This document shows, in pieces, positions 5,832 to 6,875 of a stretch of DNA of 36,658 nucleotides. Below the pieces are notes generated by a model that did no database searches, had not been told where the DNA came from, and was given only the letters and a program-made list of their open reading frames with translations. Position 1 is the first letter of the stretch. Every line of letters begins with the position of its first letter. This DNA is from Alphaproteobacteria bacterium GWC2_42_16 (lineage in GTDB: Bacteria; Pseudomonadota; Alphaproteobacteria; UBA9655). Made by a program: the position numbers and the translations under genes. The stretch lies in the NCBI GenBank assembly GCA_001767835.1, contig MEMA01000053.1, positions 1-36,658 of the forward strand, in the 5' to 3' direction.

Positions 5832-6218
5832 GATCGTATCTTTTTTCCCATCTTTTAATTAATAAAATAGGTTGTAGTTGTTGTATACCCATAGATTGTT
5901 GGGGATTATTTTTTCTTCGTCATTTATTCACATACCATTTTTTTCAACAAAACCCAACACCTTAACCCTGTGAATTATGTGGAAAATTCTGAAAAGGAGG
6001 GCTACTCTTAGGAATAGAAGGTTCTCATAGAGAGAAAAGATGGAGAAAATTAGGACTGTTTTAGCTAAAGTCTTTTGTCCACACCCCTTGAAAAGCAAAA
6101 TCACAAGTGGATTTTTTTGGAGATATTCTTTTCTTACCCACAAAAAGGTAGGGCTTGCAGGGGGGGCGTTTCTTTTTACCCAGATAATTCACGAGTTATA
6201 CACGAAGGAAAAAAAAGC
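5832..6218. other. Candidate chromosomal replication origin (oriC) between hemE and coaE
   Basis: 387 bases with no convincing gene; an open frame runs through part of it but matches no family. Allowing one mismatch to the DnaA box TTATNCACA I find: TTATTCACA 5924-5932 (exact); TGTGAATTA 5969-5977 and TGTGGAAAA 5978-5986 (both reverse, adjacent); TTGTCCACA 6075-6083; TTACCCACA 6134-6142; TTATACACG 6196-6204; and TGTGGATAA 6220-6228 (exact, reverse, just over the edge in coaE). About 0.3 such words are expected by chance at equal base composition. The hemE side is very AT-rich and could be the unwinding element. Established: alphaproteobacterial oriC often lies beside hemE, with coaE and dnaQ nearby. 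Inference: this is oriC. Confidence 0.72.
5924..5932 (+). promoter_or_regulatory. DnaA box, exact match
   Basis: TTATTCACA matches TTATNCACA at every fixed position. It lies on the AT-rich hemE side of the candidate origin. Confidence 0.65.
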
Positions 6219-6875
6219 GTGTGGATAATCGGTATTACGGGGAGCATTGGAGCAGGAAAGTCCTTTCTTTCAAAGTCCTTGGAGTCCTTAGGCGTTCCAG
6301 TTCATTCCTCAGATAAGTATATCCATGCGCTTTTGAGGGATGATAAGGACATCCAGAAAGAGATAAAAAAACGCTGGCCAAAGGCTGTTGTTAAAGGAAA
6401 AGTGGATCGACGAATTTTGGGCGATTGTGTTTTAGAGGCACCTTCAAACCTCAGAATTCTAGAATCTATCCTTTACCCAAAATTACTCATTTCCCAAAAA
6501 AAGTTCATAAAAAGAAATCACAAGCTCCGCAAAAAAGCCGTTGCCCTTGATATTCCTTTGCTTTTTGAATTTGGGTTTGAGAGATATTGTGATTGCATCA
6601 TTCTTGCTGTAACATCCTCTTTTCTAAGGACAAAAAGAGTTTTAAGACGACAAGGAATGAGCCTAAAAAAATTTAAAGCTTTTGAAGCCGAACAAATGAA
6701 CGACGCAAACAAAGGCAAACTGGCGGACTTTATTGTGTTTTGTGGAGGAGAAAGGGAGAGTGCCTTAAAAAAAATTCGTACTATTCTTTATCACCTTTTT
6801 CAAAACCCTATGCCAAAATGGCAAGGAAAATGGCCGTCTCAGGTTAAAAAAATCCCTCTAAAAAAGATCCCCTAA
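6219..6875 (+). CDS. coaE: Dephospho-CoA kinase
   Basis: 218 residues from the chosen start. It phosphorylates the 3'-hydroxyl of dephospho-CoA, the last step of CoA synthesis. The P-loop GSIGAGKS is at 8-15, followed by SSDKYIHALL, then ALDIPLLFEFG and a lid region VLRRQGMSLKKFKAFEAEQM. The open frame extends to 6075, but that extension has no family resemblance. GTG at 6219 gives MWIIGITGSIGAGKS, a typical start, with GAAGGA about 10 nt upstream. It diverges from hemE across the candidate origin. PPSRP, maf and aroE, which often lie between oriC and coaE in related bacteria, are absent here. Confidence 0.9.
   Translation: MWIIGITGSIGAGKSFLSKSLESLGVPVHSSDKYIHALLRDDKDIQKEIKKRWPKAVVKGKVDRRILGDCVLEAPSNLRILESILYPKLLISQKKFIKRNHKLRKKAVALDIPLLFEFGFERYCDCIILAVTSSFLRTKRVLRRQGMSLKKFKAFEAEQMNDANKGKLADFIVFCGGERESALKKIRTILYHLFQNPMPKWQGKWPSQVKKIPLKKIP
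6220..6228 (-). promoter_or_regulatory. DnaA box, exact match, overlapping the coaE start codon
   Basis: TGTGGATAA is the reverse complement of the high-affinity box TTATCCACA. It overlaps the GTG start of coaE (6219-6221), so DnaA bound here could also affect coaE expression. That effect is inference. Confidence 0.7.

What the first reader, a model, noticed from the sequence alone, without database searches (positions are those of the whole stretch)
5832..6228. Candidate chromosomal origin of replication beside hemE
Seen: seven DnaA-box-like words (two exact TTATNCACA, five with one mismatch) in about 305 bases, where roughly 0.3 would be expected at equal base composition; a very AT-rich flank on the hemE side; divergent hemE and coaE. 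Known: in Caulobacter and Rickettsia the origin lies next to hemE, and coaE and dnaQ are often close by. Here PPSRP, maf and aroE are missing between the origin and coaE, so the locus is contracted. Inference: this is oriC of this genome.
Basis: partly seen in the sequence, partly recalled or inferred. Interest (0 to 1): 0.75.

Follow-up and report, generated by a model that had tools for sequence, protein, structure and literature searches.

The report
Chromosome replication origin beside hemE
This stretch is almost certainly where this uncultured alphaproteobacterium starts copying its chromosome, and next to the initiator-protein sites it carries a three-base repeat that looks like an unrecognised variant of a known strand-opening signal.

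Summary
Seven DnaA boxes lie in 305 bp; about 0.3 are expected, and the genome-wide chance is about 1e-3. In 14 same-genus genomes (HemE 57-68% identical) hemE faces a similar box array. Where coaE is on the contig the gap is 391-400 bp (359 in one), with boxes at corresponding positions. GC skew switches at this gap in most contigs tested. dnaA lies elsewhere, without a cluster. PPSRP and aroE are undetected in the genome and the only maf is elsewhere, so the locus is contracted.

Tract plus box occurs once in the genome, at hemE. It resembles the DnaA-trio module, but published trios need a central A. Here T and G are conserved and the centre varies. Across 114 other alphaproteobacterial hemE-upstream regions, TNGx3 plus a box occurs on one strand only (25 vs 0); A-centred triplets show no strand bias. 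Alphaproteobacterial DnaA has Tyr where B. subtilis has Asn187, which contacts that A. The origin is a known kind; the centre-free tract may be an undescribed variant. Nothing was tested experimentally.

The parts
4806..5831 (-). hemE (uroporphyrinogen decarboxylase), first gene of a leftward hemE-hemH-hemJ group; left boundary of the origin
   Evidence: Pfam URO-D 2.5e-101; ferrochelatase and UPF0093 follow
5838..5871 (.). AT-rich block, probable duplex unwinding element
   Evidence: 78% AT at 5840-5871; weakest 30-bp stretch of the gap starts at 5840, among the weakest 0.6% of the window. A TTTAATAATTTATAAAAG-like block recurs in relatives
5872..5886 (+). Period-3 TNG tract TTGTAGTTGTTGTAT, DnaA-trio-like single-strand binding element (inferred)
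   Evidence: T and G columns 5875,5877,5878,5880,5881,5883,5884 invariant in 15/15 genomes; third positions vary; entropy in lowest 0.3% of windows; tract plus spacer plus box is unique in the genome
5900..5908 (-). DUE-proximal DnaA box, W-box type (TAATCCCCA), 13 nt from the tract
   Evidence: Column pattern TG[GT]GGATNA nearly invariant in 15 genomes, lowest 0.5% entropy; W-box core TCCCCA (PMC4285127)
5924..5932 (+). DnaA box, exact TTATTCACA
   Evidence: position conserved across genus
5969..5977 (-). DnaA-box-like word TAATTCACA; poorly conserved, may be chance
   Evidence: entropy near average
5978..5986 (-). DnaA box TTTTCCACA
   Evidence: entropy lowest 0.3% of windows
6075..6083 (+). 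DnaA box TTGTCCACA
   Evidence: position occupied in most relatives
6134..6142 (+). DnaA box TTACCCACA
   Evidence: aligned TTATCCNCA in many relatives
6196..6204 (+). DnaA box TTATACACG
   Evidence: aligned TTATNCNNA in most relatives
6220..6228 (-). DnaA box, exact TTATCCACA, overlapping the first codons of coaE
   Evidence: present within one mismatch in 10 of 13 relatives whose coaE start is on the contig
6219..6875 (+). coaE (dephospho-CoA kinase), GTG start at 6219; right boundary
   Evidence: Pfam CoaE 2.2e-30; start context read
7280..8029 (+). dnaQ-like 3'-5' exonuclease gene
   Evidence: Pfam RNase_T 3.1e-36

Best explanation
5838-6228 is the chromosomal origin (oriC) of this alphaproteobacterium. 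DnaA binds the box array and the hemE-proximal W-type box at 5900-5908 (inferred). From that box an ATP-DnaA oligomer extends leftwards over the top strand of the TNG tract at 5872-5886, as in the DnaA-trio 'basal unwinding system', opening the AT-rich block at 5838-5871 so that helicase can load (inferred). The alphaproteobacterial form of the tract fixes T and G of each triplet and leaves the centre free, unlike the A-centred trios described so far. Shown here: the sites, their conservation, strand specificity, uniqueness in the genome and the skew switch. Inferred: DnaA binding, unwinding and origin activity.
For: Seven boxes in 305 bp, about 1e-3 by chance genome-wide. Gap length 391-400 bp in 12 of 13 relatives with coaE on the contig, with box positions conserved. 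Skew lower on the hemE side in 6 of 7 contigs, cumulative minimum within 6 kb in 5 of 7. Tract+box pattern found once in this genome and once in 11 of 14 relatives, at hemE in each (all 15 have a tract in the alignment). Class-wide TNGx3+box on one strand only: 25 vs 0 of 114. hemE-side origin is experimentally established in Caulobacter (PMC1914354). Trio-box spacing of 10-13 bp is the published peak (PMC8287927). The dnaA locus and the examined exact-box loci hold no comparable cluster.
Against: Draft assembly in 56 contigs with only 5.8 kb on the hemE side, so whole-chromosome skew cannot be drawn. G013 and G002 do not show the skew minimum at the gap. Three of the genus genomes miss the fixed tract+box pattern at two mismatches, though the alignment shows a tract in each. 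No IHF or CtrA sites in the window copy. Three of the four TNG triplets here have a central T, which impairs unwinding in B. subtilis (PMC10721633).
Confidence: 0.93

Rival explanations
1. The array is a DnaA-regulated promoter region or DnaA-titrating site for hemE/coaE rather than the origin.
For: Divergent promoters must lie here; DnaA is also a transcription factor in Caulobacter (PMC4468827); the last box overlaps the coaE start codon.
Against: Many sites with fixed spacing over a nearly constant gap length across the genus, a strand-specific tract next to a reverse box class-wide, and a replication-type skew switch at the same place.
Confidence: 0.05
2. The period-3 tract is a hemE promoter or 5'-leader element or a random microsatellite, and is not read by DnaA; the origin opens elsewhere in the AT-rich block.
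For: It lies 40-55 bp upstream of hemE in this genus, and only about a quarter to two fifths of sampled alphaproteobacteria show three or more contiguous units.
Against: Distance to hemE varies from about 45 to 184 nt across the class while the tract stays just left of reverse boxes; one strand only, 25 vs 0 with box; 47 observed against 6.8 in dinucleotide shuffles; G and T positions invariant while the third position varies.
Confidence: 0.25
3. The tract is an ordinary A-centred DnaA-trio and the T/G centres are tolerated noise, without any change in DnaA specificity.
For: TAG is the commonest unit overall (centres A 53, T 45, G 26, C 2); trios are described as degenerate (PMC8287927).
Against: A-centred patterns show no strand bias beside boxes ([TA]A[GA]x3: 6 vs 4; NANx3: 38 vs 40) while TNG does (25 vs 0). 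In the window genome only one of four TNG units has a central A. The position of Asn187, which contacts the A, is Tyr, Phe or His in 38 of 38 alphaproteobacterial DnaAs compared.
Confidence: 0.35

Closest known systems
Caulobacter crescentus Cori (and the Rickettsia origin) at hemE
   Same: Origin in the intergenic gap upstream of hemE, AT-rich segment, DnaA boxes, weak W-type boxes with core TCCCCA (PMC1914354; PMC4285127)
   Different: Right neighbour is coaE, not PPSRP (DUF299); no CtrA-type TTAA-N7-TTAA and no IHF-type site within one mismatch in the window copy; boxes closer to the general consensus than Caulobacter G-boxes
DnaA-trio / basal unwinding system (BUS) of Bacillus subtilis oriC
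   Same: Trinucleotide repeat on one strand, between AT-rich DNA and a box, 13-nt spacer, 3'-G.T-5' units
   Different: Central base free (A, T or G) instead of conserved A; DnaA residue corresponding to Asn187 is Tyr
Escherichia coli oriC single-stranded DUE motifs TTGT/TTATT
   Same: Tract begins TTGT and can be read as overlapping TGT units next to a box in the orientation of R1 (R1 orientation from own knowledge); DnaA position 190 is Val, as in E. coli (Val211)
   Different: Strict period of three; E. coli has Gln, not Tyr, at the Asn187 position
Thermotoga maritima eTrio (TAG x3)
   Same: Tandem triplets, essential there for unwinding and for ssDUE binding (PMC10316083)
   Different: TAG only, and a different DnaA box

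Membership tests
hemE-side alphaproteobacterial chromosomal origin | Position in the gap upstream of hemE | tested here: met
hemE-side alphaproteobacterial chromosomal origin | Cluster of DnaA boxes exceeding the rest of the genome | tested here: met
   not every one-mismatch cluster in the draft genome was enumerated
hemE-side alphaproteobacterial chromosomal origin | AT content above genome average with a low-stability stretch | tested here: met
   Gap 65% AT against 59% for the window; low-stability stretch at 5838-5871
hemE-side alphaproteobacterial chromosomal origin | Shift of GC skew | tested here: met
   6 of 7 contigs significantly lower on hemE side, minimum within 6 kb in 5 of 7; local contigs only, no whole chromosome
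hemE-side alphaproteobacterial chromosomal origin | PPSRP (COG1806) as the other boundary gene | tested here: not met
   Family undetected in genome; boundary is coaE. Boundary genes are known to vary, e.g. in Wolbachia, so this is not treated as excluding
hemE-side alphaproteobacterial chromosomal origin | CtrA and IHF sites | tested here: not met
   None within one mismatch in the window copy, scattered in relatives. CtrA sites are not general in alphaproteobacterial origins (PMC4468827)
hemE-side alphaproteobacterial chromosomal origin | Initiation of replication at this site | not testable with these tools
   Needs marker frequency or a plasmid replication assay
DnaA-trio / BUS | At least three triplets with central A, (.A.){3,}, beside a box | tested here: not met
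   Window tract is TTG TAG TTG TTG TAT; only TAG and TAT have a central A, and they are not contiguous (criterion)
DnaA-trio / BUS | Spacer between box and trios of at most 16 bp, peak 10-13 | tested here: met
   13 nt
DnaA-trio / BUS | Fixed strand and polarity relative to the box | tested here: met
   25 top, 0 bottom of 114
DnaA-trio / BUS | DnaA binds the tract as single strand and separates the strands | not testable with these tools
   Needs purified DnaA

The most novel reading that the evidence does not exclude
Alphaproteobacterial origins carry a variant of the DnaA-trio in which DnaA reads T and G of each triplet and not the central base, and this goes with an Asn-to-Tyr change at the DnaA residue that contacts that base in B. 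subtilis. Searches that demand a central A would miss it, or pick the wrong site, in this class.
Probability: 0.4. Interest if true: 0.7.

Novelty: new variant of a known kind. Interest (0 to 1): 0.48.

Why it matters
The origin gives a firm replication start point, and hence arm assignment, for an uncultured genus with at least 15 sampled species. The tract matters more: how DnaA recognises its single-stranded opening site across bacteria is open, and the A-centred rule comes from a few non-alphaproteobacterial species. Here is a natural data set in which the centre varies freely while the flanking bases are fixed, together with a DnaA substitution at the contacting residue, so the specificity model can be tested directly.

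Tried and rejected
A full-genome one-mismatch box map was not obtained because the listing is truncated, so rival clusters were checked at the dnaA contig and at 12 other exact-box loci only. dnaA as a rival origin: dnaA-dnaN on contig C17, at most 2 boxes per 300 bp, rejected. CtrA, IHF and GANTC scans gave nothing consistent. Box 5969-5977 is probably not conserved. A published-style A-centred trio search gave no strand signal in the class. The coaE start overlap was considered as protein constraint versus box constraint: ATA is a minority Ile codon in window genes (72 of 511), but G004 and G007 lack the word within one mismatch there, so it was not pursued. Literature: only one held paper has 'DnaA-trio', 'Alphaproteobacteria' and 'oriC' together, by title and abstract about Epsilonproteobacteria; subscription papers and supplements could not be searched, so novelty is provisional.

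Full report
Observation. The window as a whole has an ordinary number of such words (37 against 31.6 in shuffles), so the point is their clustering. With 1,524 one-mismatch words in 1.544 Mb the cluster has a genome-wide chance of about 1e-3 by a Poisson scan. The flank on the hemE side is 78% AT over 5840-5871 and among the least stable 0.6% of 30-bp stretches in the window. hemE, followed by hemH and hemJ, points left; coaE and a dnaQ-like gene point right. coaE begins at GTG 6219, so the last box lies over its first codons.

Conservation in the genus. The window is the whole of contig C53 of a 56-contig draft. Fourteen same-genus genomes hold hemE at 57-68% identity. In 13 of them coaE is also on the contig; the hemE-coaE gap is 391-400 bp in 12 and 359 bp in one, with DnaA boxes at corresponding positions (about +69-, 92+, 109+, 146-, 200-, 247+, 306+, 366+, 390-, alignment). 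A fixed gap length and fixed site positions, while most of the gap sequence has diverged, are what an assembled nucleoprotein complex would preserve.

Replication signature. Strand-corrected third-codon-position GC skew per gene was compared on the two sides in seven contigs. It is significantly lower on the hemE side in six (p from 1.9e-5 to 0.013), and pooled means are -0.084 and +0.065 (the pooled p of 2e-22 overstates, because orthologues are not independent). The cumulative minimum falls at +443 bp in the window and within 6 kb in G014, G009, G008 and G005. G013 and G002 do not show it; G002 offers only 12 kb to the right.

Rivals in the genome. dnaA lies with dnaN on contig C17, where no 300-bp stretch has more than two boxes; other examined loci with exact boxes reach three. 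Not every one-mismatch cluster of the genome could be listed.

Contraction. In class relatives G017, G022 and G024, PPSRP, maf and aroE follow hemE and the origin in that order. In this genus PPSRP and AroE are undetected in all 12 genomes searched, and the single maf of the window genome is on another contig, C31.

Between the AT-rich block and the boxes lies TTGTAGTTGTTGTAT (5872-5886), then 13 nt, then a reverse box TAATCCCCA (5900-5908), which contains the Caulobacter W-box core TCCCCA (PMC4285127). In the 15 genus sequences the T and G of the central triplets are invariant while every third base changes: position 5876 is 9 A/6 T, 5879 is 7 T/5 A/3 G, 5882 is 7 T/7 A/1 C. Tract and proximal box are among the least variable stretches of the gap (0.3% and 0.5% of windows). 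The combined pattern with up to two mismatches occurs once in the window genome and once in 11 of 14 relatives, at hemE in each.

Class-wide test. Eighty further hemE-upstream regions were fetched without regard to their content, and with 34 already held they make 114. TNGx3 occurs on the top strand in 47 and on the bottom strand in 3, against 6.8 in shuffles; with a GGGGAT- or TGTGRAT-type box within 32 nt it is 32 loci against 0. With a stricter box rule and 0-16 nt spacing TNG gives 25 against 0, TWG 15 against 0, A-centred [TA]A[GA] 6 against 4 and NAN 38 against 40. Centres in the anchored tracts are A 53, T 45, G 26, C 2. The strand-specific signal in this class is therefore T-any-G, not any-A-any. 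The set is drawn evenly from the class, but the sequences are related, so counts are not independent events.

Relation to known mechanism. In B. subtilis the DnaA-trio (3'-GAT-5') beside a box directs a DnaA oligomer onto one strand; the usual box-trio spacer is 10-13 bp and the published search requires a central A in at least three units (PMC8287927). The central A is contacted by Asn187; T or G there impairs, C is tolerated (PMC10721633). In the window genome's DnaA the aligned residue is Tyr185; in 38 alphaproteobacterial sequences compared it is Tyr 35, Phe 2, His 1, and in E. coli Gln. The pattern of centres here (T and G common, C rare) is the opposite of the B. subtilis tolerance. The tract also reads as overlapping TGT units, akin to the E. 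coli TTGT motif. Which bases the alphaproteobacterial protein captures, and in which register, is not known; the Tyr link is a coincidence of two class-wide facts, not a demonstrated cause.

Mechanism proposed. DnaA fills the array up to the W-type box at 5900, the oligomer continues leftwards on the top strand of 5872-5886, the AT-rich 5838-5871 opens and helicase loads. Sites, conservation, polarity, uniqueness and skew are shown; binding, opening and origin activity are inferred.

Verdict. The locus is the oriC of this genome with high confidence and is, as an origin, a new member of a known kind. The centre-free tract may be a new variant of a known element; the held literature searched shows no description of it, but subscription papers and supplements were out of reach.

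Noticed in passing
window 5872-5886 and class-wide hemE-upstream regions (L104-L118, L183-L281): Period-3 TNG tract with free centre, strand-specific in alphaproteobacterial origins; the A-centred trio rule shows no strand signal there.
   Followed up: yes
L123:6586-7917 (dnaA, contig C17): DnaA residue 185 is Tyr where B. subtilis has Asn187; Tyr, Phe or His in all 38 alphaproteobacterial DnaAs compared.
   Followed up: partly
whole genome G000: PPSRP (PF03618) and the AroE N-terminal domain (PF08501) are undetected in this genome and in the 11 same-genus genomes searched, suggesting loss of a shikimate pathway step and possibly host dependence.
   Followed up: partly
window 6219-6228: A DnaA box overlaps the coaE start codon and constrains its first residues (Trp-Ile-Ile); G004 and G007 lack both the box (within one mismatch) and the Trp.
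   Followed up: partly
window about 6095-6130: A conserved non-box stretch (AAATCACAAGNGGATNGTTTTGGAGATAT-like) inside the origin of many relatives, function unknown.
   Followed up: no
window 14137-15567 and 34272-35738: Two proteins with archaeal-type ATPase_2 (PF01637) domains in one contig.
   Followed up: no
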